A stretch of DNA of 64,000 nt from Pseudomonas fulva 12-X (GTDB lineage: Bacteria > Pseudomonadota > Gammaproteobacteria > Pseudomonadales > Pseudomonadaceae), in NCBI RefSeq assembly GCF_000213805.1, contig NC_015556.1, positions 434,001 to 498,000 on the forward strand, written 5' to 3'. Of this stretch, positions 9,491-64,000 are shown piece after piece. The notes under the pieces were generated by a model. The model was given only the letters and a program-made list of their open reading frames with translations, was not told the DNA's origin and made no database searches. Each line of letters starts with the position of its first letter. Positions within the stretch are counted from its first letter, which is position 1. Position numbers and translations under genes: made by a program.

Positions 9491-9558
9491 GAATGTGGCT
9501 CGGCTGTAGACGTGTTCGGACGGATCAAGGCTGCCCGTCATGGCGGAAAAGTGTGCCG

Positions 9559-9567
9559 ATGATAACA
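9559..9567 (-). promoter_or_regulatory. Candidate extended -10 promoter for argH
   Basis: On the minus strand this reads TGTTATCAT, an extended -10 element (TGn + TATCAT), which would start transcription about 60 bases before the argH ATG. No good -35 match is visible. The same 9-mer occurs upstream of hemC. The rest of the 219-base argH/algZ intergenic region shows no clear operator. Confidence 0.4.
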
Positions 9568-9709
9568 GACCCGGCAGCGGGCGCAGTGGCCGCTTCGAGT
9601 GTCGTCTGGGTCACAGTTTCGCCCCCTGACAAGGCGTTTACGCGGCTTATTTCGCCTGCCTGCCACGGGCTCTCTTGCCGGTTGCGCAGTGCACGTCGAA
9701 ACTGCCGAG

Positions 9710-10786
9710 ATGAACGACACACGCAAGACCTCGACCCCCAAGGCGCCGAACGATTTCTTCGTGCCCGAACTGTGCCAGCCCGAAGCGCTGCTCAGCACCG
9801 TGCTGCTCGCCGAACTGCTGGTGCTGGTACTGGTGCTAGCCGAGCCGATGTTGCCCGGTTTCGACTGGGTGCGCCTGGCGCTGACCTCGCTGTTCGTACA
9901 GTGGATCGTGCTTCTGTCCTCGGCATTGTTGTGCCGGTTGCGCCCGCTGCTCGCCAGGCTGCCAGCGATGTGGGCGGGGGCGGCCTGCTGTGCATTGGTG
10001 GTGGGGCTCACGCTGGGCTGCACGGCGGTCGCCGACTATTACGATCTTGGCGGGCCGCTGCCCCATGAGGGCGAGGTCAACCTGTACCTTCGTCATGCAC
10101 TGATCAGCCTGATCATGTCGGCGTTGCTACTGCGTTATTTCTACCTGCAGAGCCAGTGGCGGCGTCAGGAGCAGGCCGAGCTGCGCGCGCGCATCGAGTC
10201 GCTGCAGGCGCGCATCCGCCCGCACTTCCTGTTCAACAGTTTGAACAGCATCGCGAGCCTGGTTGTCACAGATTCTGCCAGGGCGGAACAGGCGGTGCTG
10301 GATCTATCCGACCTGTTCCGGGCAAGCCTGGCCAAGCCCGGAAGCCTCGTCAGTTGGAGCGAGGAACTGGAACTGGCACGGCGGTACCTGTCGATCGAGC
10401 AATACCGGCTTGGCGAGCGGCTACAGTTGCAGTGGGACGTCGATGACGTGCCCGCCGACCTGCCGATTCCCCAGCTGACTCTGCAGCCGCTGCTGGAGAA
10501 CGCTCTGATCTACGGTATCCAGCCACGTATCGAGGGGGGACTGGTGCAGATATCAGCCACATACACCGATGGGATTTTCCATCTCAGCGTCTGCAATCCC
10601 TATGAGGAGGGCAGCGCGCCCATGGCTTCGCGCGGTACGCACCAGGCACTGGCCAACATCGATGCGCGGCTTGCGGCACTTTTCGGTTCGCAGGCCAATC
10701 TGAGTGTGGAGCGCCGCGATGGCCTTCACTACACCCGTCTACGCTACCCATGTGCAAGACCCATGCAGGAAGCCAGATCATTATGA
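9710..10786 (+). CDS. algZ: AlgZ (FimS), LytS-type sensor histidine kinase
   Basis: A 358-residue inner-membrane sensor partner of AlgR, controlling alginate, twitching motility and virulence genes in Pseudomonas. The N-terminal half has four hydrophobic segments (about residues 26-48, 54-76, 85-107 and 127-147). The HisKA_7TM/LytS-type kinase half begins near 150, with the phospho-acceptor His172 in IRPHFLFNSLNSIASL and an N-box Asn264 in LQPLLENALIYGI. As in known AlgZ, the glycine-rich ATP-lid boxes are poorly recognisable. The ATG at 9710 is chosen because it gives the family's 358-residue length. The stop overlaps the algR start (ATGA), implying translational coupling. Confidence 0.93.
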   Translation: MNDTRKTSTPKAPNDFFVPELCQPEALLSTVLLAELLVLVLVLAEPMLPGFDWVRLALTSLFVQWIVLLSSALLCRLRPLLARLPAMWAGAACCALVVGLTLGCTAVADYYDLGGPLPHEGEVNLYLRHALISLIMSALLLRYFYLQSQWRRQEQAELRARIESLQARIRPHFLFNSLNSIASLVVTDSARAEQAVLDLSDLFRASLAKPGSLVSWSEELELARRYLSIEQYRLGERLQLQWDVDDVPADLPIPQLTLQPLLENALIYGIQPRIEGGLVQISATYTDGIFHLSVCNPYEEGSAPMASRGTHQALANIDARLAALFGSQANLSVERRDGLHYTRLRYPCARPMQEARSL

Positions 10787-11529
10787 ATGTCTTGATCGTT
10801 GATGACGAACCCCTTGCCCGTGAGCGCCTGAGCCGAATGGTGGCCGCGCTGGACGGCTATCGTGTGGTCGAGCCCTCTGCGAGCAATGGCGAAGAGGCAT
10901 TGGCCCTCGTGGAGAGCCTCAAGCCCGACGTAGTGCTGCTCGACATCCGCATGCCGGGCCTCGATGGTCTGCAGGCCGCTGCCAAGCTCTGCGAGCGCGA
11001 GGCGCCGCCAGCGGTGATCTTCTGCACCGCCCATGATGAATTCGCGGTGGAGGCCTTTCAGGTCAGCGCCGTGGGCTATCTGGTCAAGCCCGTGCGCCCC
11101 GAGCATCTCGAGGACGCGCTGAAAAAAGCCGAGCGCCTCAACCGTGTGCAACTGGCCGCGCTCACCCGCCCGGCGGCGGAAAGCGGCGTCGGCCCACGCA
11201 GCCACATCAGCGCGCGGACCCGCAAGGGCATCGAGCTGATCCCGCTGGACGACGTGATCTATTTCATCGCCGACCACAAGTACGTGACCCTGCGCCACGA
11301 CGGTGGCGAGGTGTTGCTAGATGAGCCGCTCAAGGCCCTCGAAGACGAATTCGGCGACCGTTTCGTGCGTATCCACCGCAACGCTCTGGTGGCGCGCGAG
11401 CGCATCGAGCGGCTGCAGCGAACCCCGCTGGGCCACTTCCAGCTGTATCTGAAGGGGCTCAATGGCGATGCGCTGGTGGTCAGTCGTCGTCACGTCGCGG
11501 GCGTGCGCAAGCTGATGAGCCAGATCTAG
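10783..11529 (+). CDS. algR: AlgR, LytTR-type response regulator
   Basis: A 248-residue DNA-binding response regulator. The receiver domain (about 1-120) starts MNVLIVDDEPLARERL and has the phosphorylation site Asp54 in VVLLDIRMPGLDG, with the conserved Thr/Lys region CTAHDEFAVEAF...YLVKPVRPEHL. The LytTR DNA-binding domain spans about 140-245 (LDDVIYFIADHKYVTLRH, GDRFVRIHRNALVARERI). Length and sequence match P. aeruginosa AlgR, which activates algD, the fimU-pil genes and others. The ATG at 10783 overlaps the algZ stop by four bases. HemC follows 100 bases downstream, the usual pseudomonad order. Confidence 0.96.
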   Translation: MNVLIVDDEPLARERLSRMVAALDGYRVVEPSASNGEEALALVESLKPDVVLLDIRMPGLDGLQAAAKLCEREAPPAVIFCTAHDEFAVEAFQVSAVGYLVKPVRPEHLEDALKKAERLNRVQLAALTRPAAESGVGPRSHISARTRKGIELIPLDDVIYFIADHKYVTLRHDGGEVLLDEPLKALEDEFGDRFVRIHRNALVARERIERLQRTPLGHFQLYLKGLNGDALVVSRRHVAGVRKLMSQI

Positions 11530-53015: not shown

Positions 53016-53933
53016 ATGCGTCAGGTTCTCGTCGTTCACTTTTCACAGACTGGCCAATTGAACCGCCTGGTGCAATCGGTCTGTGCGCCCTTGCAGGCGA
53101 GCGACGGCCTGCAGGTCGACTTCCTGGCCCTGCAACCGGCCCAGCCGTTTCCCTTTCCGTGGCCCTTTCTCGGCTTTTTCCGGATCTTCCCGGAAACCGT
53201 GCTGATGAAACCGCAGCCGCTGCTGCCCCTGGCCGTCGACCCCGACAAGCGGTACGACCTGATCATTCTCGCCTATCAGGTATGGTTCCTGTCGCCCTCG
53301 TTGCCCTGTACCAGTTTTCTCGCATCCCCCGAGGCCGCGCGGCTGCTCAAGGGTACGCCGGTGGTGACCCTGATCGGCTGCCGCAACATGTGGCTAATGG
53401 CCCAGGAAAAGGTCAAGGCGCGCCTGCAGGGGCTGGGTGCGAAACTGGTCGACAACGTGGTGCTGACCGATGCCTGCGGCACGGCAGCCAGCTTTCTGGC
53501 CACGCCGCTGTGGATGTTCACCGGCCGGCAGAAACCCTATAGCTGGGTGCCGCGTGCCGGCATCGACGAGAGCGAACTGGCCGCCGCCAGCCGTTTTGGC
53601 GAGGCCATCGCGCGACGCCTGCAGGCGGACGAGCAGCCCATCGAGCAGCCGATGCTCCGCGGCCTGGGCGCGGTGAAAGTGGACGAGAAGCTGATCGCCA
53701 GCGAGAAGGTCGGCAATCGCAGCTTTACCCTGTGGAGCCGCCTGCTATCAGCGCTCGGGCCCCAGCAGAGCCGACGCCGTGGTGCCGGGCTGGTGGTCTA
53801 CATCGTTTTCCTGATCTGCCTGATCATCACCGTGGTGCCGATCACCGCAGTGCTGAAGAAGCTGCTGGCGCCGCTCTCCAAGGCGCGCATCCAGCGTGAA
53901 AAGGCCTATTTCGCCGGGCCTTCCGGCGAGTGA
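53016..53933 (+). CDS. Flavodoxin-fold protein, dialkylresorcinol condensing enzyme-like
   Basis: A 305-residue protein. The N-terminus MRQVLVVHFSQTGQLNRLVQSV has the flavodoxin phosphate-binding loop (SQTGQL), and IILAYQVWFLSPSLPCTSFL is the second flavin-contact region; VVTLIGCRNMWLMAQ follows. A membrane helix near the C-terminus (about 250-275, GLVVYIVFLICLIITVVPITAVL) with a basic tail anchors it in the inner membrane. I recognise it as the family commonly named DarA-like 'dialkylresorcinol condensing enzyme'; how that activity relates to the flavodoxin fold is not obvious. It is followed after 20 bases by a KAS III-like gene, the same pairing as darA-darB. Its ribosome-binding site (AGGGA, 13 bases away) is weak. 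Confidence 0.72.
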   Translation: MRQVLVVHFSQTGQLNRLVQSVCAPLQASDGLQVDFLALQPAQPFPFPWPFLGFFRIFPETVLMKPQPLLPLAVDPDKRYDLIILAYQVWFLSPSLPCTSFLASPEAARLLKGTPVVTLIGCRNMWLMAQEKVKARLQGLGAKLVDNVVLTDACGTAASFLATPLWMFTGRQKPYSWVPRAGIDESELAAASRFGEAIARRLQADEQPIEQPMLRGLGAVKVDEKLIASEKVGNRSFTLWSRLLSALGPQQSRRRGAGLVVYIVFLICLIITVVPITAVLKKLLAPLSKARIQREKAYFAGPSGE

Positions 53934-53953
53934 CACGGGCCGAGGACAAGTTC

Positions 53954-55111
53954 ATGGCTACACCCGTATTCATCAACCGCATCAGCACCTGCCTGCCCCA
54001 TGCGCCTGTGGGCAACGAGCAGATGGAAGCGCGCCTCGGCATGGTCGGCGACAAGCCGTCACGGGCGCGCAGGCTGATCCTGCGCCGCAACGGCATCCAG
54101 CAGCGCCACTACGTCATCGACCCGCGCACCGGCGAGCCGAGCATGAACAACGCTCAGCTCAGCGCCGAGGCGATTCGCGGCCTGGCCGGCGATGGCTTCG
54201 AGCTGAATGACCTCGAATGCCTGGTGGCCAGCACCTCGTCGCCCGACCAGGTGATGCCCGGCCACGCGGTTATGGTGCACGGCGAGCTGGGCAACCCGCC
54301 CTGCGAGGTGGCGACCACCGCCGGCATCTGCGTGTGCGGGATGACCGCCCTGAAATACGCCTGGATGAGCGTGGCCAGCGGGCAGAGCGGCAACGCCGTG
54401 GCCTGCGGCTCGGAAGTGGCCTCGGCGATGATGCAGGCGCGCAACTTCAACGCCGAGTACGAGAGCCGCGTCGACGAGCTGGAGAAGCACCCGGAAATCG
54501 CCTTCGAGAAGGACTTCCTGCGCTGGATGCTCTCCGACGGCGCCGGCGCCGTGCTGCTGCAGGATCGCCCCAATTCAAACGGCCTGAGCCTGCGCATCGA
54601 TTGGCTGGACATCCTGTCCTTCGCCGATCAGATGCCGGCCTGCATGTACGCCGGCGCGGAGATGGAAGAGGGCGCCCTGCGCGGCTGGACTAGCTATGAC
54701 GCCGAGCAGCGCGCGCAACGCTCGGTGATGGCGGTCAAGCAGGACGTCAAACTGCTCAACGACAACATCGTGCGCCTCACCGTGGTCGAGGCGCTGCGGC
54801 GCATCATGGCGCGCCGCGAGCTGCGCGTGGCGGACATCGACTGGTTCCTGCCCCATTACTCGTCCGATTTCTTCCGCGAGCGCCTGGCGGCTGGTCTGGC
54901 CGAGGTCGACCTGCCGATTCCCATGACGCGCTGGTTCACCAATCTGACGAGCAAGGGCAACACCGGCGCGGCGTCGATCTTCATCATCCTCGACGAACTG
55001 TTCAATGGCGGGCACCTGCGCAGCGGCCAGAAACTGCTCTGCTACGTGCCGGAAAGCGGGCGTTTCTCCAGTGCATTCATGCACCTGACGGTGGTCGGCG
55101 ATGAAGCTTGA
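53954..55111 (+). CDS. KAS III-like beta-ketoacyl synthase (DarB/FabH-like)
   Basis: A 385-residue thiolase-fold condensing enzyme. It carries a FabH-type triad: Cys126 (AGICVCGMTALKYAW, a second Cys at 128), His301 (DIDWFLPHYSSDFF, in place of the usual HQAN) and Asn336 (SKGNTGAAS). The N-terminal LEC LVASTSSPDQVMPG region is typical of KAS III. It probably condenses or transfers an acyl chain in the pathway rather than starting general fatty-acid synthesis. The ATG at 53954 has GAGGAC upstream; a GTG at 53930 is less likely. It overlaps the next gene by 11 bases. Confidence 0.82.
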   Translation: MATPVFINRISTCLPHAPVGNEQMEARLGMVGDKPSRARRLILRRNGIQQRHYVIDPRTGEPSMNNAQLSAEAIRGLAGDGFELNDLECLVASTSSPDQVMPGHAVMVHGELGNPPCEVATTAGICVCGMTALKYAWMSVASGQSGNAVACGSEVASAMMQARNFNAEYESRVDELEKHPEIAFEKDFLRWMLSDGAGAVLLQDRPNSNGLSLRIDWLDILSFADQMPACMYAGAEMEEGALRGWTSYDAEQRAQRSVMAVKQDVKLLNDNIVRLTVVEALRRIMARRELRVADIDWFLPHYSSDFFRERLAAGLAEVDLPIPMTRWFTNLTSKGNTGAASIFIILDELFNGGHLRSGQKLLCYVPESGRFSSAFMHLTVVGDEA

Positions 55112-55508
55112 CGAGGTTCCTCAGGATCCGGATTCCGCCTACGGCGGGCACAGCAAGCTGCTCTATGCCGTTGACGACAAGGGCCAGTACCAGGGCGCGC
55201 CGAGCGCCGGTTGGGAGCCGGAGTCCTATTCCACCCAGCTGGCCGTCGCCGAGCTGCAGGCCCAGGAAGCCGAAGCCCACGCCGCCTGGCAGCGCGGCGA
55301 AGCATCGCCGCTCGAGTGCCTGATGTACCGCTACCGCATGGACCTGCCGGCCCTGGCGCAGATCGCCGGGCTCTGGCAGTGGCGCGTGCGCCGGCACTTT
55401 CGCCCGGAAATCTACCGGCGCTTGAGCGATTCGCTGCTGGGCCGCTACGCCGAGGCCTTTGGCTTGAGCGTCGAAGAACTGCGTCGCTACCAGAAGGAAC
55501 AGCCATGA
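55101..55508 (+). CDS. Small HTH-like protein of unknown function in the lipid cluster
   Basis: A 135-residue soluble protein I do not recognise. The N-terminal 45 residues are acidic and polar (DEVPQDPDSAYGGHSKLLYAVDD...); the C-terminal part (about 72-133), ECLMYRYRMDLPALAQ then IAGLWQWRVRRHFRPEIYRR and LLGRYAEAFGLSVEELRRYQ, has the spacing of an Xre-like helix-turn-helix plus a capping repeat. It could be a regulator or a protein-protein adaptor. It overlaps KAS III by 11 bases at its start, and its stop overlaps the BtrH-like start (ATGA), so it is co-translated with both and probably required in fixed ratio. Confidence 0.6.
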   Translation: MKLDEVPQDPDSAYGGHSKLLYAVDDKGQYQGAPSAGWEPESYSTQLAVAELQAQEAEAHAAWQRGEASPLECLMYRYRMDLPALAQIAGLWQWRVRRHFRPEIYRRLSDSLLGRYAEAFGLSVEELRRYQKEQP

Positions 55509-56506
55509 GCGCGTTCGAGCACCGCCAGAGCGCCCACTGCGAAAGTGGCGTGATGGCCAGCCTGCTGACCCAGGCCGGTCTGCCGATGAGCGAGCCGATG
55601 GCCTTCGGCCTGGCCTCGGGCCTGGCATTCGCCTACCTGCCGATCGTCAAACTCGGCGGCATGCCGCTGATCGCCTACCGCATGCCGCCGCGGCACCTGA
55701 TCAAGACCCTGAGCAAACGCCTGGGCGTGCGCCTGACCAGCCGCACCTTCAACAACCCGGAGCAGGGCCGTCAGGCCCTAGACGAAGCGTTGGATGGCGG
55801 CCGTCTGGTCGGCCTGCAGAGCTCGGTGTTCTGGCTGCCGTACTTCCCGCCGGAGATGCGCTTTCACTTCAACGCCCACAACCTGCTGGCCTATGGTCGC
55901 GAGGGCGACGACTACCTGCTCAGCGACCCGGTGTTCGAAGCGCCAGTGCTCTGCGCCGCCGCGGACCTGCAGAAAGCGCGCTTCGCCAAAGGCGCCCTGG
56001 CGGCCAAGGGGCTGATGTATTACCTGGACGATGTGCCGCCTGAGCAGGACTGGCACAAGCTGATCCGCCAGAGCGTGCTGTCCACCTCGCGCATTCTCGA
56101 TGGCCTGCCGCTGCCGTGGATCGGCATTCGCGGTATTCGCCACCTAGCCAACTGCGTGGAGAAACTCGACCCGGCCCAGGCCAAGTACAACCGCCTGTAC
56201 CTCACCCATATCGTGCGCATGCAGGAAGAGATCGGCACCGGCGGCGCCGGCTTTCGCTTCATGTATGCGAGCTTTCTGCAGGAGGCTGGCGAGAAGATCG
56301 GCGACGCCACCTTGCGCGAAGCCTCGACGCGCCTGACCGCCGTGGGCGACGACTGGCGCCAGTTCGCCTCGGCCTGCGTGCGCGCTAGCCGCAGCAAGGG
56401 CGAGGCGCCGGACTTCCGGCCGATTGCCGAGATGCTGCGGGGGATTGCTGGGCAGGAGCGGGTGTTGATGAAGGAGTTGGGGGCTTGGGCCAAGCGTAAG
56501 GGCTGA
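55505..56506 (+). CDS. BtrH-like acyltransferase (BtrH_N/DUF4872)
   Basis: A 333-residue protein with a papain-like BtrH N-terminal domain: Cys12 in SAHCESGVMASLL, His125 (with His121) in HFNAHNLLAYG, and Asp141 in LLSDPVFE, matching the family's Cys-His-Asp arrangement. The C-terminal half (about 190-330, including HKLIRQSVLSTSRILDG and GTGGAGFRFMYASFLQEAGE) corresponds to the associated DUF4872 region. BtrH of butirosin synthesis moves an acyl group from a carrier protein to an amine. Here it may offload the product of the nearby ACP. The start overlaps the previous stop by four bases; a REPIN-like spacer follows. Confidence 0.78.
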   Translation: MSAFEHRQSAHCESGVMASLLTQAGLPMSEPMAFGLASGLAFAYLPIVKLGGMPLIAYRMPPRHLIKTLSKRLGVRLTSRTFNNPEQGRQALDEALDGGRLVGLQSSVFWLPYFPPEMRFHFNAHNLLAYGREGDDYLLSDPVFEAPVLCAAADLQKARFAKGALAAKGLMYYLDDVPPEQDWHKLIRQSVLSTSRILDGLPLPWIGIRGIRHLANCVEKLDPAQAKYNRLYLTHIVRMQEEIGTGGAGFRFMYASFLQEAGEKIGDATLREASTRLTAVGDDWRQFASACVRASRSKGEAPDFRPIAEMLRGIAGQERVLMKELGAWAKRKG

Positions 56507-56539
56507 CGCTCAGCTGTCTGAGCGCGCTAATCCGAAGAT

Positions 56540-56690
56540 TTTTCGCGGGCATGGCCCGCTCCCACAGGGGTTGGCTCAGCATGTAAGGTTGGATGACGCT
56601 CTTTTCATCCACCGTTGTGATCGTGTGGCGGTGCACGAGAGAAGGGTCGTCCACCCCCCAACTTGTGGGAGCGGGCCTTGCCCGCGATAG
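56540..56690. repeat. REPIN-like pair of inverted REP sequences
   Basis: Two Pseudomonas-type REP elements face each other in the 309-base gap between the two converging blocks. One (about 56540-56570) has the core GCGGGC-ATG-GCCCGC followed by TCCCACAGG; the other (about 56664-56690) has TGTGGGA-GCGGGC-CTT-GCCCGC. The spacer between them is about 90 bases. This is the layout of REPINs mobilised by RAYT transposases; no RAYT gene is in the window. Confidence 0.75.
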
Positions 56691-56732
56691 TTCGCGCCCA
56701 TAGCGCGCTCCCGCTGGGTTACAGCTGCAGCC

Positions 56733-56783
56733 CGTAGGATGGGTGAAACCCATCAATTGCCGATGGGTTGCACCCATCCTACG
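56733..56783. repeat. 51-base imperfect palindrome
   Basis: The left arm CGTAGGATGGGTG-A-AACCCATC (56733-56754) pairs with GATGGGTT-G-CACCCATCCTACG (56762-56783) around a 7-base centre (AATTGCC), with a single A/G mismatch. The CGTAGGATGGG ends are typical of a small dispersed repeat found in pseudomonads. With the REP pair it fills the convergent junction and may terminate both transcripts. Confidence 0.65.
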
Positions 56784-56815
56784 AGTGGCTGCTCCGACCA
56801 CAAAACAGTCACTAT

Positions 56816-57367
56816 TTAAAGCTGCAATTCCAGCACATCGATCCCCGCCGTCAGCCCGGCAAAATCCGCTGCCTGGCTTAGCCCTTCGATCACTACCGCC
56901 TGGGCCTCGAACTCGTCGTCTTCATCGATCATCACCAGCAGCGCCTGGCCGATCAGGCCGTCGGCTAGGTCGAGGTTGGCCAGGGCCTGCAGGTGTTTCC
57001 ATACATTGGGGCCGGCGCCGATGAACAGGTTCGGGCCTTCCAGGCCCAGTTGCGCGGCGACGTGGAAGCCGGCGGCGTTGCTGACGCTGTTGACGAATTC
57101 GAAGGGCTTGGGCTGCAGCTGGTGCACGCACACGCTGTCGAGCAGCGAGCCCATGGTGGCCCGTGCCGGATGGCGGGATGCCAGGTACAGGCCGCAGTCG
57201 CGGCGGATCTTGGCCTTGAGCGGCGCGGTGCACAGCAGCGCCTGGAGGATCAGCCGGTCGATGCGCCGCGGCGTGGTCGGCAGCCAGTTGATCAGCGCGG
57301 CTTTGATGTCCTTGTCGGTGTCCTGTGCGTCGCCGCTTACGCTGCAGGCTGCGATGGTCGAACTCAT
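56816..57367 (-). CDS. Beta-ketoacyl synthase chain-length-factor-like protein, short
   Basis: A 183-residue ketosynthase-like protein. FVNSVSNAAGFHVAAQLGLEGPNLFIGAGPNVWKHLQALANLDLADG (about 90-136) aligns with the N-terminal active-site region of KAS I/II enzymes, but the position of the catalytic cysteine (normally in a ACSSS-type motif) is occupied by the GAGPN segment. No condensing chemistry is therefore expected. It covers only half of a KS fold and resembles the chain-length-factor subunits of aryl-polyene clusters, which are short. It overlaps the upstream KS gene by four bases (ATGA) and is the last gene of the operon. Confidence 0.72.
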   Translation of the reverse strand: MSSTIAACSVSGDAQDTDKDIKAALINWLPTTPRRIDRLILQALLCTAPLKAKIRRDCGLYLASRHPARATMGSLLDSVCVHQLQPKPFEFVNSVSNAAGFHVAAQLGLEGPNLFIGAGPNVWKHLQALANLDLADGLIGQALLVMIDEDDEFEAQAVVIEGLSQAADFAGLTAGIDVLELQL

Positions 57368-58470
57368 GGTGCGTCTCCCGCGCCGCGTTGCAGCACCAGG
57401 CTGGCGTTGTTGCCGCCGAAGCCGAAGTAGTTGGCCAGCAGCAGGCTGCTTTCGCTGATCGCCAGCGGTTCGCCCGGCAGTGGCAGCAGGGCGTCCCTGG
57501 CGTAATCGCAGGCAGGCAGGTGAGCGAGGTTTTCCACCAGCAGCAGGGTTTCGGTCAGGCCGCAGGCGCCCAGGGTGTGGCCGAGCCAGGGCTTGAGCAC
57601 ACAGAGCGGCGGCAGCGCGTCGCCGAACAGCAGGCGCACGCCGTTGCTTTCGGCGCGGTCGTTGGCGCCAGTGGCGGTGCCATGGGGTTTGACCAGGCCG
57701 ATCTGCCCGGCATCCACCCCGGCGCTGCGCAGGGCTTGGCGCATCACCCACTCGATATGGCTACCGTCTTCGCGGGTATTGGTCAGGCTGCTGGTGTCGC
57801 AGGCGCTGAAACCGCCGAGCAGGCGTGCCAGCGGCGCCGGGCCGGGCTCCAGGGCCAGCAGGGTGGCCGCGTAGGCTTCGCCCAGCACCAGGCCATCGCG
57901 TTGCGGATGAAAGGGCCGGTACTCGCCGCTCGGCGAAACCAGGCCTAAAGCGCCAAAGCCCTGCTGGGCGATGGCGCTGGGCGTTTCGAAGGCCAGCACC
58001 AGTACCCGCCGATAGAGCCCGGCGCCGAGCATCCGGGCGCCGTAGAGCAGGCCGTTGGCGGCGCTGGTGCAGGCGGTGTTGAGGGTGAAGGCATCATTGA
58101 AGCCCCAGAGCTGGCGCAGGCGGTCAGCGATCAGGTCGAGGGAGGTCGAATGATCCGGGTGAAAGCCGCCATTTCGGGCGGCCTGCGCTTCCAGCTCGTC
58201 GATATCCAGGCTGGTGCTGGCGACGATCAGCAGGCAGTCGTCCAGCGTTCCGGGCGCGTCGCCCAGGGTTTCGCGGATCAGCCGGTCGAAATGCTCGCCC
58301 AGGGCTTCGTTGCTGGCCACGACCAGATACGGCCGTGGCTCTTGCAGCTCGTGCAGCATCACGGTTTCAGCAATTGGCCGCACGCCGCTACGCAGGGCGG
58401 CGTTGGCGGCGGGCAGGTCGGCGCCGAGGGCGCTGTGCAGGGCGCCGCGCTGCAGGTAAACAGGCGTCAC
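57364..58470 (-). CDS. Beta-ketoacyl-ACP synthase (KAS I/II-type)
   Basis: A 368-residue condensing enzyme with a complete Cys-His-His set: Cys134 in LNTACTSAANGL, His263 in KPHGTATGAND and His298 in WLGHTLGACG. The C-terminal LLANYFGFGGNNASLVL is the usual KS ending. It is shorter than housekeeping FabB/FabF (about 405-415). The N-terminus starts at a GTG at 58470 overlapping the ACP stop (GTGA), and its stop overlaps the CLF-like gene. Together with that protein it probably forms a KS-CLF heterodimer extending an ACP-bound chain. Confidence 0.85.
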   Translation of the reverse strand: MTPVYLQRGALHSALGADLPAANAALRSGVRPIAETVMLHELQEPRPYLVVASNEALGEHFDRLIRETLGDAPGTLDDCLLIVASTSLDIDELEAQAARNGGFHPDHSTSLDLIADRLRQLWGFNDAFTLNTACTSAANGLLYGARMLGAGLYRRVLVLAFETPSAIAQQGFGALGLVSPSGEYRPFHPQRDGLVLGEAYAATLLALEPGPAPLARLLGGFSACDTSSLTNTREDGSHIEWVMRQALRSAGVDAGQIGLVKPHGTATGANDRAESNGVRLLFGDALPPLCVLKPWLGHTLGACGLTETLLLVENLAHLPACDYARDALLPLPGEPLAISESSLLLANYFGFGGNNASLVLQRGAGDAP

Positions 58471-58733
58471 GCCTGTTGCCTGATGAAGGCCGCGATACTG
58501 GCGATGCTGTTGAGAATCCGTCGGCCATCCTGGGCGCCTTCGATGCGCACCCCGTAGTGCTGCTGCAGCGCCAGGGAGACCTGCAGGGCGTCGAGGCTGT
58601 CCATCTGAATGCGGCTCTGCTGGCCGAACAGCGGTTCGTCGTCGGTGATGCTCTGCCAGTCGATGTCGTCTTCCTTGTCGCACTCGCGAATCAGCAATTG
58701 CTTGAGCTTTTCTTCTAGTAGTGTGTGGTCCAT
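58467..58733 (-). CDS. Acyl carrier protein (dedicated)
   Basis: An 88-residue acyl carrier protein. The phosphopantetheine-attachment serine is Ser46 in IQMDSLDALQVSLAL (DSL motif). Flanking helices are acidic (LLEEKLKQLLIRECDKEDDI) and the C-terminus ILNSIASIAAFIRQQA matches helix IV. It is distinct from housekeeping AcpP, which is normally next to fabF and fabD. The ATG at 58731-58733 lies inside the end of the permease gene (19-base overlap) and its stop overlaps the KS start. No phosphopantetheinyl transferase is in the window. Confidence 0.88.
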   Translation of the reverse strand: MDHTLLEEKLKQLLIRECDKEDDIDWQSITDDEPLFGQQSRIQMDSLDALQVSLALQQHYGVRIEGAQDGRRILNSIASIAAFIRQQA

Positions 58734-59902
58734 TGCGTTTGCTGTACTCGTTTGTGGAACAGGAACAGGCCGCTGATACCGGCTGCCGCTGCGAACAGCA
58801 GCAGGCGCACGCACCAGGGGGCTACGTCGTTCAGTGAGCCGTGGCCCACCAGCAGGGTGAGAAAGGCGTCCAGTGCCCAACTCATCGGTGAAATCTCCGC
58901 CAGTTGGCGCATGGCCTCGGGCATCACGCTCTTGGGCACCATGATGCCGCCGATGGCTGCGAGGATGATATTGATCCCGCCGCCAAGCAATAGGGCTTGT
59001 TCACTGCTGCGTGCCAGGGCGGCCAGGAGCAGGCCCAGGCTGGTGGTCGCCAGGGCGATGCTGATGGCCAGCCAGGCATAGGCAAGCAGGCTGCCGTTGA
59101 GTTCCAGCGCCGGCAGGCCGACCAGTGGCAAACCGTGCACGCCGATACTCAGCAGCACCGCGAACTGCACCAGGTTGATGGCCAGATACGGCAGCACCTT
59201 GCTCGCCGCCAGGGTGCCTAGCCCCAGGCCCAGGCAACGGAAACGCAGCAGTGCGCCGCTCTGCTGCTCGCGCTGGAAGCTGCCGGCCATGGGCAGCATC
59301 ACGAAGAACATGCCGAAGATCAGCCAGGCCGGCACGCTCATCTGCGTGGCATTGGCCTGGGCGCTGAGGTCGCCGCTGGCCAGGCGTTCCTGCTCGTCGA
59401 TGCGGCTTTCGGTGCGCTGCTGGATCAGTTCGAGCTGCTCGGCACGGGACAGGCCGTCCTGCAGTGCGCCACTGTCCTGCAGGTAGGCGAGCAGCCGGGT
59501 CTGGGCCAGGGCGATGGTCACCGCCCCGTGCAGGCGCTGGCGCGAGAGGCGGTCGAACTGGGCGGGGAAGCTCAGGCTCGGGCCCTGGTGCGGCGTATCC
59601 AGCAAATGCTGGTCGAAGTCTTCGGGCAGGCTGATGCGCGCCATCTGCGCCGGGCCGCTTTCCAGCAGCTGGCTGTCCGGCAGCTGCGCCTGCAGGGCGT
59701 CGTGGAAGAAGCGGCTCGACTCGCTCTGCTGTGGGGCCTCCAGCACCAGCTGCAGTGGCGGCAGACGATCCTGCAGGTAGCTGGACATGGCGCCGGCCAT
59801 GATCACCAGAAACAGCGTCGGCATCAGGAACAGCACGGCCAGGGCGTGAGGGTCACGCACCAGCAGGACGATTTCCTTGCGAACCAGGGCGCGCAGTCTC
59901 AC
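58715..59902 (-). CDS. ABC-2-type exporter permease
   Basis: A 395-residue membrane protein with the ABC-2 layout: one N-terminal helix (about 22-42, AVLFLMPTLFLVIMAGAMSS), a large extracytoplasmic domain (about 45-200), and five C-terminal helices (from about 205: VPAWLIFGMFFVMLPMAG, LAINLVQFAVLLSIGV, LLAYAWLAISIALATTSLGLLL, GGGINIILAAIGGIMVP, VRLLLFAAAAGISGLFLF). The start is a GTG at 59902 overlapping the ATPase stop (GTGA). With the ATPase it forms an exporter, presumably for the lipid/polyketide product of the same operon. Only one permease gene is seen, so it likely homodimerises. Confidence 0.85.
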   Translation of the reverse strand: MRLRALVRKEIVLLVRDPHALAVLFLMPTLFLVIMAGAMSSYLQDRLPPLQLVLEAPQQSESSRFFHDALQAQLPDSQLLESGPAQMARISLPEDFDQHLLDTPHQGPSLSFPAQFDRLSRQRLHGAVTIALAQTRLLAYLQDSGALQDGLSRAEQLELIQQRTESRIDEQERLASGDLSAQANATQMSVPAWLIFGMFFVMLPMAGSFQREQQSGALLRFRCLGLGLGTLAASKVLPYLAINLVQFAVLLSIGVHGLPLVGLPALELNGSLLAYAWLAISIALATTSLGLLLAALARSSEQALLLGGGINIILAAIGGIMVPKSVMPEAMRQLAEISPMSWALDAFLTLLVGHGSLNDVAPWCVRLLLFAAAAGISGLFLFHKRVQQTQWTTHY

Positions 59903-60783
59903 AGGCGACCTCCGTTGAGGCGCAGGTACAGCTGCTCCAGGGACGGCCGACCGAAGCGCAGCAGGCTGGGCGCTTGCGGCTGTGCGGCGATGAAGCGGGT
60001 GATTGCCAGCAGCTGTTCGACGTTCAGCGCGGCGATGCGCAGTCCGTCCGGCGTGGGCTCGGCGCTTAGCCCGAGCTCGGCCAGCAGCGCCGGCAAGGCT
60101 TGCGGCACACCCTCGGGCCACTCCAGAAACAGCCCCGGCTGGTCACCGAGCAACTGGCGCGTGTCGACATCCAGCTGCACGCGGCCTTCGTGCAGCAGCA
60201 GAATGCGGTCGGCGACCTTTTCCACTTCGTCCAGGTAATGGCTGGTGTAGATCACCGCCTTGCCGTCGGCGGTCAACTGCTGCACGGCGTCGAGCAGCAA
60301 CTGCCGGCTGGCGGCATCGACGCCCACGGTGGCCTCGTCGAACAGGTACAGCTCGGCCGGTTGCAGCAGGCCGATGGCGAAGTTCAGGCGCCGCTGCTCA
60401 CCACCGGACAGGCGTTCGGCGCGGCGTTCGAGCTTGTCTTCTAGGGATGTGCTGGCGATGCAGCGCTCCAGGCGCTGGCGCCGCTCGACGCCGCGCAGCC
60501 CGTAGAGGTCAGCGAACAGCGCGAGGTTTTCCTTCACCTTCAGCCCGGCGTAAAAGGCCAACTGCTGGGGCACCAGGCCCAGGCGTCGCTCGCCCTGCCA
60601 GGCGATTCGCCCGTCGAGCGGCTGCAGCACGCCACTGAGCAGTGACAGCAGGGTGGTCTTGCCGGCGCCGTTGCTGCCCAACAGCCCCAGGCACTGGCCG
60701 GCCTGCAGGTTCAGGTCGATACCGTGCAGCGCCGGTTGCGCGGCGCCGGGGTAGCGATAGGAGAGGCGGCTGAGTTCAAGCAC
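59899..60783 (-). CDS. ABC transporter ATP-binding protein
   Basis: A 294-residue ATPase with Walker A GLLGSNGAGKTTLL, Q-loop region LVPQQLAFYAGLKVKENLALFADLYGL, signature LSGGEQRRLNFAIG, Walker B LYLFDEATVGVD and the H-loop YTSHYLDEVEKVA. The subfamily is DrrA/CcmA-like, associated with ABC-2 permeases. The C-terminal 80 residues, including GLRIAALNVEQLLAITRFI, form an accessory domain. The start is GTG at 60783, which overlaps the hotdog gene by eight bases. All catalytic motifs are present. Confidence 0.9.
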   Translation of the reverse strand: MLELSRLSYRYPGAAQPALHGIDLNLQAGQCLGLLGSNGAGKTTLLSLLSGVLQPLDGRIAWQGERRLGLVPQQLAFYAGLKVKENLALFADLYGLRGVERRQRLERCIASTSLEDKLERRAERLSGGEQRRLNFAIGLLQPAELYLFDEATVGVDAASRQLLLDAVQQLTADGKAVIYTSHYLDEVEKVADRILLLHEGRVQLDVDTRQLLGDQPGLFLEWPEGVPQALPALLAELGLSAEPTPDGLRIAALNVEQLLAITRFIAAQPQAPSLLRFGRPSLEQLYLRLNGGRL

Positions 60784-61183
60784 GGATGAGCACCAGCAGC
60801 AGTTTGCCGTCCAGCAGCAGGTGCTCGCCTTCGTGCACGCTGAAGCCATAGAGCGCGCCGGCGGGGCTCAGGGCTTCCTGGGTGGCGCTGACCAGCAGGG
60901 CGCCTTCGCGCTGGGTGGGGTGATAGTGCAGCTGCAGCTGGGAGAGTTTGCCGACCAGGGCCATTTCGATGGCGCTGTCGTTGCCGTATAAGGCACCATG
61001 CGCAGCGCACAACTGGGCAGCGGCCTCGAACAACAGGCAGGGAGAAGCGTTTTCGCCCAGGCTCTGTAGATGCCGCCAGTCGCTCAGGCCGCGAATGCCA
61101 CTGGCATCGTGGTCTAGCAGGGCATCCAGCCAGAGGGCCTGGCCCTGATGCGGCAGCAGTGAGTGCAGTTGGGTGCGATCCAT
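60776..61183 (-). CDS. Hotdog-fold protein, ApeP/FabZ-like, atypical
   Basis: A 135-residue hotdog-fold protein, first gene of the minus-strand operon. LHSLLPHQGQALWLDALLDHDASGI resembles the N-terminus of 3-hydroxyacyl-ACP dehydratases, and the central helix SPCLLFEAAAQLCAAHGALYG carries the conserved Glu53 and AAQ. The residue just before that Glu region, where dehydratases of this group (and FabZ) place a catalytic His, appears to be Leu or Cys. Dehydration is therefore doubtful; a thioesterase, a chain-binding or a dead subunit is possible. The ATG at 61181-61183 is used; the ribosome-binding site is weak. It is divergent from the methyltransferase-like gene. Confidence 0.72.
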   Translation of the reverse strand: MDRTQLHSLLPHQGQALWLDALLDHDASGIRGLSDWRHLQSLGENASPCLLFEAAAQLCAAHGALYGNDSAIEMALVGKLSQLQLHYHPTQREGALLVSATQEALSPAGALYGFSVHEGEHLLLDGKLLLVLIRA

Positions 61184-61241
61184 GGCGGGTGTCTGGCGTG
61201 CGAGCGCAGCAGTGTAACAGAGGGTCTTAGGGAGCAAGCGA

Positions 61242-61796
61242 GTGGGCGGTTGGCAATTGGTGGTTTTCGTGGGGCTGAGCATCGCCCTGACCCTGGTCTC
61301 CTGGCGTTCGCTGGGCAACCCGCGCAGCCACGGCTTCTACCGCTACTTCGCCTGGGAAGTGATGCTGGTGATGCTGGTGCTCAATGCGCCGTTCTGGTTC
61401 GAGGACCGCGCCGCCGTGCATCAGCAGATTTCCTGGGTGTTGCTGACCGCCTCGCTGGCGGTGCTGTTCGCCGGCATCTACCAGATGCGCCGCTTCGGGC
61501 GTGCCGACGAGCGCCGCCAGGACGACGAACTGTTCGCCTTCGAGCGCACCTCACAACTGGTCACCAGCGGCATCTTCGCCCATATCCGCCATCCGATGTA
61601 CTGCTCGCTATTGTTGCTTGCCTGGGGCATTGCCTGGAAGCAGCCGGGTGTTCTGGTCATGCTGCTGGCCTTGGCGGCCAGTGCGCTGCTCTGGCTGGCC
61701 GCGCGCGTCGAGGAGCGTGAGTCGCTGGTCTATTTCGGCGACGCCTACCGCGACTACATGGCGCGCAGCCGGATGTTTGTACCCTTTATCTTCTGA
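61242..61796 (+). CDS. Isoprenylcysteine carboxyl methyltransferase-like membrane protein
   Basis: A 184-residue membrane protein with four or five helices (about 4-20, 38-55, 68-86, 118-148). The ICMT/PEMT signature is SGIFAHIRHPMYCSLLLL with the downstream EERESLVYFGDAYRDYMARSRMFVP, which binds S-adenosylmethionine in this family. Bacterial members methylate lipids or have unknown substrates. The start is a GTG at 61242 with AGGGAG 8 bases upstream. It is divergent from the operon starting at the hotdog gene, so it may be a late tailoring enzyme of the same product or an unrelated neighbour. Confidence 0.72.
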   Translation: MGGWQLVVFVGLSIALTLVSWRSLGNPRSHGFYRYFAWEVMLVMLVLNAPFWFEDRAAVHQQISWVLLTASLAVLFAGIYQMRRFGRADERRQDDELFAFERTSQLVTSGIFAHIRHPMYCSLLLLAWGIAWKQPGVLVMLLALAASALLWLAARVEERESLVYFGDAYRDYMARSRMFVPFIF

Positions 61797-61798
61797 GC

Positions 61799-62398
61799 TC
61801 AGCGAACGTCTGATGAAGGCCGGTCTTCCAGCATCAGCTGGCGGTAGGCGCGCTGATATGTCTCGTAATCCAGATTCTGCTGCTGCAGCTGCTTGAGCCG
61901 CTCCTGCTTGTTCAGCTTGCCGCTCTCGCTTACATCTGGAGCCTTGGTGACAGGCTCGGCGATCAGCTGAGTGTTGCTCAGCAGCTCATCGATCACTGGG
62001 TCCATCTTGCTTTTCGTGCCCTGCCACTTCATCAGCGACAGACCGCCTTTGCCGCGCAGGTGGTAGGCCGCCGTGGCCAGTGTCTGCCGCCGCGGACCGA
62101 GAATGGTCAGCTCGGCGCTGGACATATAAGGCGCCATGTCCCACGAGCGCCGCGCCGTATACCGCACCACGTACGGGCACTGGTCCCATGGAATCGTCGA
62201 ATATTGCTGGATGGTGATGCCGTGCCGGGCGAAGCCCTGCTGCAGCACCGGTACGAAATCGCTGACCATGACCTTGGGATTTTCTTCGATACACATGGTG
62301 GTCGGCGCGCTTTGCAGTGGCGTGACGCGAACCGAGGTGCAGGCGGCCAGGCCTAGCGCCAGAACCGAGAGGGAAAGCGCGGATAGAGCTTTGGACAT
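61799..62398 (-). CDS. Sbal_3080-type lipoprotein
   Basis: A 199-residue exported lipoprotein. Lipobox LALGLAAC places the lipidated Cys at residue 20, followed by TSVRVTPLQSAPTTMCIEENPKVMVSDFVPVLQQGFARHGI, the pattern I recognise from the Sbal_3080 lipoprotein family (unknown function). MKWQGTKSKMDPVIDELLS is another shared segment. The C-terminal 45 residues are helical and charged. The ATG at 62396-62398 has AAGGAAG upstream; a TTG three codons earlier is unlikely. It is downstream of two other exported-protein genes and the ketosynthase on the same strand, separated from them by a terminator. Confidence 0.68.
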   Translation of the reverse strand: MSKALSALSLSVLALGLAACTSVRVTPLQSAPTTMCIEENPKVMVSDFVPVLQQGFARHGITIQQYSTIPWDQCPYVVRYTARRSWDMAPYMSSAELTILGPRRQTLATAAYHLRGKGGLSLMKWQGTKSKMDPVIDELLSNTQLIAEPVTKAPDVSESGKLNKQERLKQLQQQNLDYETYQRAYRQLMLEDRPSSDVR

Positions 62399-62420
62399 GC
62401 TGAGCAACTTCCTTGTGATG

Positions 62421-62443
62421 AAAAAGCCGCCCGCAGGCGGCTT
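62421..62443 (-). terminator. Rho-independent terminator (minus strand)
   Basis: On the minus strand an 8-bp stem (AAGCCGCC/GGCGGCTT, 62424-62431 and 62436-62443, 4-base loop) is followed by TTTTTC. It ends the transcript of the 62466 gene; the lipoprotein gene beyond it starts 23 bases later. Confidence 0.7.
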
Positions 62444-62465
62444 GTTTGGCAGGGGAAGCAGGCGC

Positions 62466-62906
62466 TTACTTGACGCTCGCGTACTTACCCTTCAGCGCGA
62501 CGCCCGCCATGATGGCGCCGGCGTGGCATTCGAACTTGCTGTTGTCGCGGTATTCCTGGTTCTTGTAGTTGCTGGCCAGGTCGACCACGGCGTTGGCGCC
62601 GGCGGCCTTGGCCGAGTTCTGCAGCTTGATCAGCGCCGATTGCAGCACCCAGCGGCAGGCTTCTTCGTCGGTCTTGTTGAAGGCGTTGGTCTTCTGGCTG
62701 GTGGTGACGTTGGCGTTGATGATCTTGGCGCCGGCCGGGGTCTTGTTCAGGTAGAACTTCACCGAGCCGTCCAGGCGACCGGCCTGGGTGGCTTCGTTGA
62801 CCACCGACTGGAAGTCCAGGAAGTGGGCGGTGTCACGGGCCTGGCTGACGGCGGGCAGCAGGGCGGCGGTAAGCAGAGCAGCAGCGGTCAAGCGTTTCGC
62901 ATTCAT
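62466..62906 (-). CDS. Exported protein of unknown function (often mislabelled excinuclease subunit)
   Basis: A 146-residue secreted/periplasmic protein with a signal peptide (residues 1-23, ending AVSQA). The mature part contains DGSVKFYLNKTPAGAKIINANVTTSQKTNAF, EEACRWVLQSALIKLQNSAKAAGANAVVDLASN and KFECHAGAIMAGVALKG; the two Cys could form a disulphide. Similar sequences are sometimes labelled 'excinuclease ATPase subunit', which is clearly wrong as there is no ATPase motif. The fold resembles YbjQ/DUF4156-like proteins at the AGANAVVD motif. The ATG at 62904-62906 has GGAGAAA upstream. Confidence 0.68.
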   Translation of the reverse strand: MNAKRLTAAALLTAALLPAVSQARDTAHFLDFQSVVNEATQAGRLDGSVKFYLNKTPAGAKIINANVTTSQKTNAFNKTDEEACRWVLQSALIKLQNSAKAAGANAVVDLASNYKNQEYRDNSKFECHAGAIMAGVALKGKYASVK

Positions 62907-62924
62907 CGGTTTTCTCCTGGGGTG

Positions 62925-63329
62925 TCACTGGGTCTTGGAAAGGGAAGGACGGCGCAGTTCCTGCTGGATGGTGCGGTCGAGCGTGCGCACCCACTTGTTG
63001 TAGGCGCGGTGGATCTTGCCGTCGCGATAGCCGAGATTCTGGCTGTCGCGGTACTGGATCGCGTAAGTCGAGGCCGTGTAGGGAATGGTGATGTCGGCCT
63101 GGTGCCCGCGGCGCGTGTACTGCGCCATGATCTGCCCGCGGTCGGCGCGCTCTACTGTCCACTGGCGGCGCTGCAGGGCGGTGAGGACCGCACGGCGCAT
63201 GTCGTCCTCGCTCACCGTCACGCTGGCAGGTGCGCTGCTGTTGATGTTCATCAGCGGTTTCGAGGTGCAGGCGGTAATGCCCAGCAAGAGCGCGGCGAGT
63301 AGGGCGAAGCGGTTGAAACGAGACATCAT
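62925..63329 (-). CDS. Small lipoprotein of unknown function
   Basis: A 134-residue lipoprotein with a lipobox LLGITAC (lipidated Cys21). The mature domain starts SKPLMNINSSAPASVTVSEDDMRRAVLTALQRRQWTVERAD and ends WVRTLDRTIQQELRR; it is an alpha/beta protein of about 110 residues. Two ATGs occur in tandem; the first, at 63327-63329, has AAGGA at good spacing. It lies 18 bases before the 62466 gene and 24 bases after the ketosynthase, so the three are one operon. The family is not recognised by name. Confidence 0.65.
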   Translation of the reverse strand: MMSRFNRFALLAALLLGITACTSKPLMNINSSAPASVTVSEDDMRRAVLTALQRRQWTVERADRGQIMAQYTRRGHQADITIPYTASTYAIQYRDSQNLGYRDGKIHRAYNKWVRTLDRTIQQELRRPSLSKTQ

Positions 63330-63353
63330 CCTTGGTCCTTGTCTTGAGAGAAA

Positions 63354-64000
63354 TCAGCGCCAGCGGCGGAAGATCAGCGAGGTGTTGACCCCGCCAAAGG
63401 CGAAATTGTTGTTCATCACGTACTCGTGGCTCATCTCGCGGAACTCGCCGCGCAGATAATCCAGCTCGCCGCAGGCCGGGTCGATGTGATCCAGGTTGAG
63501 GGTGTGCACGTAGCTGTCGCGGTTGAGCATCTCGATGCTGAACCAGGACTCCAGCGCGCCGCAGGCGCCCAGGGTGTGGCCGAAGTAGCTCTTCTGCGAG
63601 CTGATCGGCATGCGCGCACCGAACAGGCTGCTGGTGGCCTGGGTTTCGGCGACGTCGCCCTGTTCGGTGGCGGTGCCGTGGCCGTTGACGTAGCCGATGG
63701 CGTCGGGTGCCAGGGCAGCGTCTTCCAGGGCCAGTTCCATGGCCCGGCGCATGGTGGCCTGCACCGGTTTGGTGGCGTGCTGGCCGTCGGCATTGCAGCC
63801 GAAGCCGACGATCTCGGCGTGGATGGTCGCGCCACGCGCCAGGGCGTGCTCCAGCTCCTCGAGCACCAGCATGCCGGCGCCTTCACCGATCACCAGGCCG
63901 TCGCGGCCGCTGTCGTAGGGGCGCGGGCTGGTGTGCGGCGCATCGTTCTTCAGGCTGGTGGCGTACAGCGCATCGAACACCATGGCTTCGGTCGGGCACA
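63354..64000 (-). CDS. Beta-ketoacyl-ACP synthase, C-terminal part (runs off the window)
   Basis: The last 215 codons of a KAS I/II-type condensing enzyme; the N-terminal half, with the active-site Cys, lies beyond the right edge. Both catalytic histidines are visible: YVNGHGTATEQGD and SYFGHTLGACGALESW. The ending MNNNFAFGGVNTSLIFRRW is the usual glycine-rich KS C-terminus. This sequence is closer to ApeO/ApeR-type KSs than to housekeeping FabF. It heads an operon with the two small exported proteins. Whether it is part of the same pathway as the KS at 57364 is likely but unproven. Confidence 0.8.
   Translation of the reverse strand, partial: CPTEAMVFDALYATSLKNDAPHTSPRPYDSGRDGLVIGEGAGMLVLEELEHALARGATIHAEIVGFGCNADGQHATKPVQATMRRAMELALEDAALAPDAIGYVNGHGTATEQGDVAETQATSSLFGARMPISSQKSYFGHTLGACGALESWFSIEMLNRDSYVHTLNLDHIDPACGELDYLRGEFREMSHEYVMNNNFAFGGVNTSLIFRRWR

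What the first reader, a model, noticed from the sequence alone, without database searches (positions are those of the whole stretch)
53016..64000. Unusual type II fatty-acid/polyketide-like cluster combining DarA-like, KAS III, KS-CLF, ACP, BtrH and an ABC exporter
Seen: two converging blocks plus a third operon encode a flavodoxin-like DarA-type protein, a KAS III, a BtrH-like acyltransferase, a KS, a CLF-like protein, a dedicated ACP, a hotdog protein, an ABC-2 exporter and at least one more KS. Known: aryl-polyene and dialkylresorcinol clusters contain KS, CLF, ACP, hotdog and DarA/DarB genes. The difference: here no ketoreductase, MMPL exporter or ligase is visible, and a BtrH and an ABC exporter are present. 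Inference: it builds an ACP-bound acyl chain, transfers it and exports it, possibly a variant or new family.
Basis: partly seen in the sequence, partly recalled or inferred. Interest (0 to 1): 0.85.

Follow-up and report, generated by a model that had tools for sequence, protein, structure and literature searches.

The report
Hybrid polyene–resorcinol pigment gene cluster
This is the left half of a known kind of bacterial pigment cluster, in which a yellow polyene chain is probably joined to a resorcinol lipid; it looked strange only because the window ends inside it, though its BtrH-like enzyme is a good, testable candidate for the joining step.

Summary
The genes are real, but the 'missing' ketoreductase, MMPL exporter and ligase lie just beyond the window edge. 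The window holds a dialkylresorcinol (DAR) unit (darA, darB, darD, BtrH-like darE; converging on them hotdog, ABC ATPase, ABC permease, ACP, KS, CLF-like gene) beside a near-complete E. coli-type aryl polyene (APE) cluster. The same DAR gene set is printed for arcuflavin of Azoarcus BH72 (PMC3949708), and hybrid APE-DAR clusters are reported in marine Pseudomonadaceae (PMC10165715). So: a new member of a known kind.

Added here: in 398 Pseudomonadota genomes the DarE/DarH and DarB models exceed their cut-offs in exactly the same 13 genomes, and all 13 carry the polyene chain-length factor (89 of 398 at E<=1e-15), not nearby in 7. The DarH model folds like carrier-protein-dependent acyltransferases (CtaG, CcbD) and keeps a Cys-His-Asp triad. 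Best guess: DarH joins polyene and resorcinol, a step assigned in print to a ligase, FlxW. Against it: two relatives have DarB and polyene CLF but no DarH; no activity was tested.

The parts
53016..53933 (+). DarA: flavodoxin-like protein, DAR aromatase/condensing protein (role from the literature)
   Evidence: 23-row alignment A3; profile matches PDB chain 2mwm, 'putative trp repressor binding protein', over positions 1-104 (E 2.9e-4; that this is a flavodoxin-type protein is recalled); no Pfam or NCBIfam match; near DarH in 70 of 81 loci
53954..55111 (+). DarB: StlD/DarB-family KAS III, DAR cyclase
   Evidence: NCBIfam NF005293 593.8 bits, cut-off 450; the narrower resorcinol_DarB model NF053539 gives 486.4, below its cut-off of 550; profile matches solved StlD 5gk0 over its full length, 616.5 bits; C126, H301, N336 invariant in 19 rows
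55101..55508 (+). DarD (Azoarcus naming; NCBIfam DarG family): 135 aa, C-terminal half with XRE/lambda-repressor-like helix-turn-helix fold
55505..56506 (+). DarE/DarH: BtrH-like acyltransferase with conserved C12-H125-D141
56816..57367 (-). DarK: short chain-length-factor-like protein
   Evidence: alignment A5 matches ketosynthase N-domain chain 7f28_A (E 3.3e-6) and 6qsp_B (E 1.3e-4; recalled as the ApeC chain of an ApeO-ApeC complex); no Pfam match over cut-off
57364..58470 (-). DarJ: ketosynthase, GTG start
   Evidence: Pfam PF02801 and PF00109; Cys142 invariant in 20 rows of A6; start
58467..58733 (-). DarC: acyl carrier protein
   Evidence: Pfam PF00550, 21.1 bits, cut-off 20.8; DSL motif visible in the translation
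58715..59902 (-). DarI: ABC-2 permease
   Evidence: PF12698 and PF01061; GTG start with GGAGG upstream
59899..60783 (-). DarF: ABC ATPase
   Evidence: PF00005; GTG start, an upstream ATG at 60849 is possible
60776..61183 (-). hotdog dehydratase-like protein, related to ApeP
   Evidence: no Pfam match over cut-off; the iterated profile started from host ApeP finds it at E 5.5e-22
61242..61796 (+). PEMT/ICMT-like membrane methyltransferase
   Evidence: PF04191 35.3 bits, cut-off 25; 22 of 81 loci
61799..63329 (-). three small predicted lipoprotein/secreted proteins (61799-62407, 62466-62906, 62925-63329) between the DAR and APE parts
   Evidence: ORFs; signal-like starts by eye; no Pfam match over cut-off; in 6-9 of 81 loci
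63354..64000 (-). ApeR-type KS of the aryl polyene cluster (gene runs to 64580); the cluster continues right to 81406
   Evidence: NF006587 726.6 bits, cut-off 470; right flank

Best explanation
A hybrid aryl polyene-dialkylresorcinol (APE-DAR) pigment cluster. Step 1: the APE part (ligase, ApeO/ApeC KS-CLF, KR, two dehydratases, ACPs) builds an aryl-polyene thioester on an ACP, from an aromatic starter made by the ammonia lyase or taken from metabolism (shown by others for related APE clusters, inferred here). Step 2: DarJ/DarK (KS/CLF-like) on DarC, with the hotdog dehydratase, supply beta-ketoacyl and 2-enoyl thioesters; DarB condenses and cyclises them and DarA aromatises the product to a 2,5-dialkylresorcinol (DarA/DarB role from the literature; the DarJ/K/C and hotdog roles inferred). 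Step 3: DarE/DarH, a Cys-His-Asp acyltransferase of the BtrH/CtaG/CcbD type, takes the polyene from its ACP and esterifies it with a resorcinol hydroxyl (inferred, about 0.45). Step 4: the ABC exporter moves the ester across the inner membrane, and MMPL/LolA-type proteins carry it to the outer membrane (inferred). DarD is a small HTH-fold partner or regulator. Membership in the APE-DAR class is about 0.9; the specific DarH step about 0.45.
Against: No product, activity or expression was measured. Two genus members, G018 and G108, have DarB over cut-off and the polyene CLF but no DarH, so DarB plus polyene does not require DarH; they may simply not join the two parts. In the host genus the CLF is common anyway (10 of 11 genomes), so the four genus members among the 13 say little. 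The published guess for the ester bond is a ligase-like enzyme, FlxW. One control genome passes the DarB cut-off (Caulobacter vibrioides or Bacteroides ihuae; the output does not say which); neither has a hit to DarH or DarG_fam, nor to BtrH_N. The narrower NCBIfam models resorcinol_DarB and flexirubin_DarG stay below their cut-offs. The host APE part has its own ApeD- and ApeJ-like enzymes and a thioesterase, so the polyene may go to another anchor. 4 of 13 DarH+ genomes lack an E. coli-type ApeR over cut-off; their polyene type was not worked out. Three of five delta-type assemblies with DarD-DarH but no DarA/DarB nearby show no DarB at E<=1e-40 (completeness unknown). The DarH model is of low confidence at residues 108-123, next to H125.
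Confidence: 0.85

Rival explanations
1. The DAR unit makes a separate alkylresorcinol lipid or signal; DarH moves a DarC-bound acyl group (not the polyene) onto it or onto another acceptor, the ABC pair exports it, and the APE cluster makes its own lipid-anchored polyene.
For: The DAR unit has its own ACP, KS and CLF-like protein. DAR and polyene genes are not near each other in 7 of 13 genomes. The host APE part keeps ApeD/ApeJ-like enzymes and a thioesterase. Two genus members have DarB and polyene CLF without DarH. Some delta-type assemblies keep DarD-DarH with no DarB found.
Against: All 13 DarH+ genomes of the phylum draw carry the polyene CLF; the reported product of the same gene set in Azoarcus is a polyene-DAR ester, and the free DAR was not detectable there.
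Confidence: 0.25
2. The ester is made by a ligase-like or ApeD/ApeJ-type enzyme of the polyene cluster, and DarH does an accessory job such as editing or ACP unloading.
For: Published postulate for flexirubin (FlxW, PMC3992019); a DarB-positive control genome without DarH.
Against: DarH is found in exactly the DarB-positive genomes of the phylum draw, and its fold is that of enzymes acting on carrier-bound acyl groups.
Confidence: 0.2
3. A new family of acyl-ACP export cluster.
For: BtrH and ABC genes are not among the genes described for the HPR dar cluster or in the E. coli APE passages that I saw.
Against: Same genes printed for arcuflavin in 2014 and NCBIfam models already named for them.
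Confidence: 0.03

Closest known systems
Arcuflavin dar locus of Azoarcus sp. BH72 (azo0283-azo0293)
   Same: darA, darB, darD, darE (BtrH-like), darF (ABC ATPase), darI (ABC permease), darC (ACP), darJ (KS), darK, as listed in Table 1 of PMC3949708
   Different: In Azoarcus the polyene genes are two unlinked xanthomonadin-type loci; here one E. coli-type APE cluster sits beside the DAR unit. Here the two DAR blocks converge and a hotdog gene accompanies the ABC genes; Azoarcus lists PHD and PilT genes between its ABC genes. The Azoarcus sequence itself was not fetched.
Hybrid APE-DAR V1-V3 clusters of marine Pseudomonadaceae (PMC10165715)
   Same: APE cluster similar to E. coli/V. fischeri connected to a DAR part that differs from the HPR cluster (passages)
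   Different: Gene order of those clusters is in a figure that I could not see, so which variant this matches is unknown
E. coli CFT073 APE cluster (apeA-R)
   Same: apeB-like methyltransferase and counterparts of apeC to apeR (G and N by position)
   Different: No apeA counterpart identified; ligase and ApeI dehydratase fused; glycosyltransferase and acyltransferase separate genes; extra ammonia lyase, FAD halogenase/reductase-like protein and multi-TM protein
HPR dar cluster of Pseudomonas chlororaphis (darA, darB, darC, darS, darR)
   Same: DarA and DarB pair
   Different: Described with three biosynthetic and two regulatory genes only, no BtrH, ABC, KS or CLF gene (PMC6403133 passages)
CtaG, AziU3, CcbD acyltransferases
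   Same: Predicted fold and Cys-His-Asp triad of DarH
   Different: 10-17% identity; CtaG is proposed to move a hydroxybenzoyl group between carrier proteins, forming an amide, whereas DarH is proposed here to form a phenol ester

Membership tests
Hybrid APE-DAR (arcuflavin/flexirubin-type) cluster | DarB/StlD-type KAS III with intact triad | tested here: met
   (family model over cut-off; C126, H301, N336 invariant in 19 rows; triad assignment recalled). The narrower resorcinol_DarB model is not passed (486.4 of 550 bits)
Hybrid APE-DAR (arcuflavin/flexirubin-type) cluster | DarA next to DarB | tested here: met
   a DarA relative also lies beside DarB in L135 and L136 (in L135 it is in two pieces)
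Hybrid APE-DAR (arcuflavin/flexirubin-type) cluster | Accessory set darC, D, E, F, I, J, K as in Azoarcus BH72 | tested here: met
   functions compared with Table 1; by sequence in Azonexus, Dechloromonas and Variovorax loci; BH72 itself not compared by sequence
Hybrid APE-DAR (arcuflavin/flexirubin-type) cluster | Polyene-building gene cluster in the same genome | tested here: met
Hybrid APE-DAR (arcuflavin/flexirubin-type) cluster | Product is a polyene-DAR ester | not testable with these tools
   needs LC-MS
E. coli-type aryl polyene cluster | KS-CLF (ApeO/C), KR (Q), dehydratases (I, P), KS (R), ACPs, ligase, MMPL, LolA | tested here: met
BtrH/CtaG-type carrier-protein-dependent acyltransferase | Fold and Cys-His-Asp triad | tested here: met
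BtrH/CtaG-type carrier-protein-dependent acyltransferase | Acyl transfer from a carrier protein | not testable with these tools
   no assay
HPR-type DAR cluster | Only darA, darB, darC plus darS/darR regulators | tested here: not met
   BtrH, ABC, KS and CLF-like genes present

The most novel reading that the evidence does not exclude
DarE/DarH, working with its constant small neighbour DarD, is the enzyme that joins the polyene to the resorcinol in proteobacterial arcuflavin-like pigments: a carrier-protein-dependent phenol esterification in the CtaG/CcbD fold. DarD-DarH with DarC/J/K and the ABC pair is a transferable acyl-transfer-and-export module that some deltaproteobacteria may use without DarA/DarB.
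Probability: 0.37. Interest if true: 0.5.

Novelty: new member of a known kind. Interest (0 to 1): 0.3.

Why it matters
The cluster is a further example of the APE-DAR pigments already reported from Pseudomonadaceae. Its value is that it makes one open step testable: which enzyme forms the polyene-resorcinol ester. The published guess is a ligase; the co-inheritance and fold results here point to the BtrH-like protein.

Tried and rejected
Rejected: 'no KR, MMPL or ligase' (window edge). Rejected: independent housekeeping genes (order recurs). Rejected: HPR-type DAR cluster. Tried without gain: PDB sequence search with DarH (only weak matches) and with DarD; literature for AziU2/U3 and for CtaG/BtrH/CcbD; arylpolyene plus resorcinol in Pseudomonas (listing only); promoter/terminator scan of the convergent gap; Rfam. 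NF006587 and NF005293 at the default E-value match almost every genome, so only matches over the curated cut-off were used. I looked for AziU2 as a precedent for a DarH-DarD complex; AziU2-U3 entries were not among the rows shown for DarD, which proves nothing.

Full report
What is there. The window is G000:C1:434001-498000 of a 4.92 Mb single-contig genome. The nearest named relatives of its DarH protein are Pseudomonas, with P. straminea at 97%, so the host is inferred to be a Pseudomonas. The window holds a + strand block, DarA 53016-53933, DarB 53954-55111, DarD 55101-55508 and DarE/DarH 55505-56506, and a converging - strand block, hotdog 60776-61183, ABC ATPase 59899-60783, ABC-2 permease 58715-59902, ACP DarC 58467-58733, KS DarJ 57364-58470 and CLF-like DarK 56816-57367. 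Neighbouring genes within a block overlap by 4-19 bases, apart from DarA and DarB (20 bases apart). Naming: I use DarD and DarE as in Azoarcus; NCBIfam calls the same proteins DarG family and DarH.

The right flank. I fetched the next 26 kb. In window numbering it carries, on the - strand, ApeR KS 63354-64580, KR 64597-65325, ApeP dehydratase from 65325 to about 65780, ApeO KS 65786-66979, a DUF3261 protein 66976-67455, methyltransferase 67452-68174, a FAD halogenase/reductase-like protein 68185-69429, a multi-TM protein 69416-70564 without Pfam match, MMPL 70561-72903, LolA 72887-73495, thioesterase 73492-73917, aromatic ammonia lyase 74007-75548, LpxL-type acyltransferase 75529-76464, glycosyltransferase 76464-77207, ligase fused to an ApeI-type dehydratase 77204-78862, membrane protein 78859-79404, two ACPs (79401-79658, 79670-79930), PlsC-type acyltransferase 79911-80720 and ApeC CLF 80693-81406. 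This agrees with the E. coli APE genes described in PMC8253772 (passages) apart from apeA, which I did not identify; apeG and apeN counterparts are by position.

Known precedent. PMC3949708 (abstract, sections 18 and 22 and passages seen) lists for the arcuflavin producer Azoarcus BH72 darA, darB, darD, darE (BtrH-like), darF (ABC ATPase), darI (ABC permease), darC (ACP), darJ (KS) and darK. It argues from MS that arcuflavin is a polyene-DAR ester and reports, among 39 genomes, 16 with DAR clusters and nine with DAR genes in or next to the polyene cluster. [quoted passage not shown] coli/V. fischeri-like APE cluster connected to a DAR part. NCBIfam family models for StlD/DarB, DarG family and 'BtrH-related acyltransferase DarH' are passed here; the narrower models resorcinol_DarB (486.4 of 550 bits) and flexirubin_DarG (126.2 of 170) are not. 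PMC6403133 (passages) describes the HPR cluster of P. chlororaphis as darA, darB, darC, darS and darR only.

Conservation. A scan with the DarH alignment found at least 565 encoding stretches, of which 80 loci were fetched: Pseudomonas, Rheinheimera, Marinobacter, Vibrio, Photobacterium, Neisseria, Aggregatibacter, Avibacterium, Variovorax, Dechloromonas, Campylobacterota and delta-type MAGs among them. In 81 loci including the host, DarD occurs in 79, ABC ATPase in 74, DarB in 72, ABC permease in 72, DarA in 70 and DarK in 67 (loci cut by contig ends are included in the 81); the gene-order map is. The APE KS ApeR is adjacent in Pseudomonas loci L038-L041, L052 and L062 and not seen within about 10 kb in, for example, L042-L045, L054 and L057.

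Co-inheritance. In one draw of 398 Pseudomonadota genomes, DarH is over its cut-off in 13 (three further genomes match below it) and DarB in 13, the same 13 genomes in 10 genera. The polyene CLF family PF13723, whose only host match is ApeC and not DarK, is in 89 of 398 at E<=1e-15 and in all 13; the chance figure is 1.7e-9 if kinship is ignored. In the host genus the family is common (10 of 11 genomes of the draw), so the weight lies outside it: 9 of 9 DarH+ genomes against 79 of 387 (counted). An E. coli-type ApeR is over cut-off in 65 of 398 and in 9 of the 13. The CLF lies within about 30 kb of the DAR unit on the same contig in 6 of 13 (G000, G267, G209, G475, G555, G465); in 7 it is 73 kb or more away or on another contig (positions). 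In the genus, DarH is over cut-off in 15 of 199 and DarB in 16 of 184. Fourteen of those 16 are DarH+; the remaining DarH+ genome, G194, has DarB next to DarH. The other two DarB+ genomes, G018 and G108, have no DarH match and short dar loci: darA-darB with a small ACP-like gene (G108, where the DarA match is in two pieces) or a methyltransferase-like gene by eye (G018), with no DarH, DarD or ABC match in 16-17 kb. Both carry the polyene CLF far away. So DarB plus polyene does not require DarH; these strains may make both parts without joining them. G122 has a DarB relative below cut-off (428.7 bits) in a different setting.

Results against. One of the 14 control genomes passes the DarB cut-off, either Caulobacter vibrioides or Bacteroides ihuae; neither matches DarH, BtrH_N or DarG_fam. 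The host APE part has its own acyltransferases and thioesterase. G018 and G108 are described above. Of five delta-type loci with DarD-DarH but no DarA/DarB nearby, two assemblies contain a DarB relative (one over cut-off at 521.6 bits, one below at 392.3) and three contain none at E<=1e-40; completeness is unknown.

Verdict. Ordinary as a cluster: a hybrid APE-DAR pigment locus seen through a window edge. Modestly interesting as a source of a testable assignment for the esterification step.

Noticed in passing
L110 4039-5458, L114 about 9400-10978, L117 8936-10327: DarD-DarH pairs (with KS/ACP/ABC genes in L110 and L117) without DarA/DarB nearby and without a DarB match at E<=1e-40 in the assembly, in delta-type MAGs.
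   Followed up: partly
L055, L069, L109 (DarJ, alignment A6): DarJ of these betaproteobacterial loci has Gln where most other rows have the first active-site His (KxQA instead of KxH), while the Cys and the GH motif are kept.
   Followed up: no
L083, L107, L111: Campylobacterota loci carry a second KS/CLF-like gene pair matched by the DarJ and DarK profiles, and an ammonia lyase match, near the dar genes.
   Followed up: no
window 55284-55508 (DarD C-terminal half): DarD, a constant neighbour of DarH, has a repressor-type helix-turn-helix fold with a conserved basic helix.
   Followed up: partly
window numbering 69416-70564 (right of the window): Multi-TM protein inside the APE cluster without Pfam match; Azoarcus arcG is annotated as a Na/H antiporter, and this protein looks similar by eye.
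   Followed up: no
window numbering 87548-89929 (right of the APE cluster): A 793-aa open frame whose translation looks like an OsmC-type domain followed by a YcaO-type domain (recognised by eye, no family scan run).
   Followed up: no
L137 7853-9085 (G122): A more distant DarB relative (428.7 bits, below cut-off) next to a ligase-like gene, a different DarB setting in the same genus.
   Followed up: no
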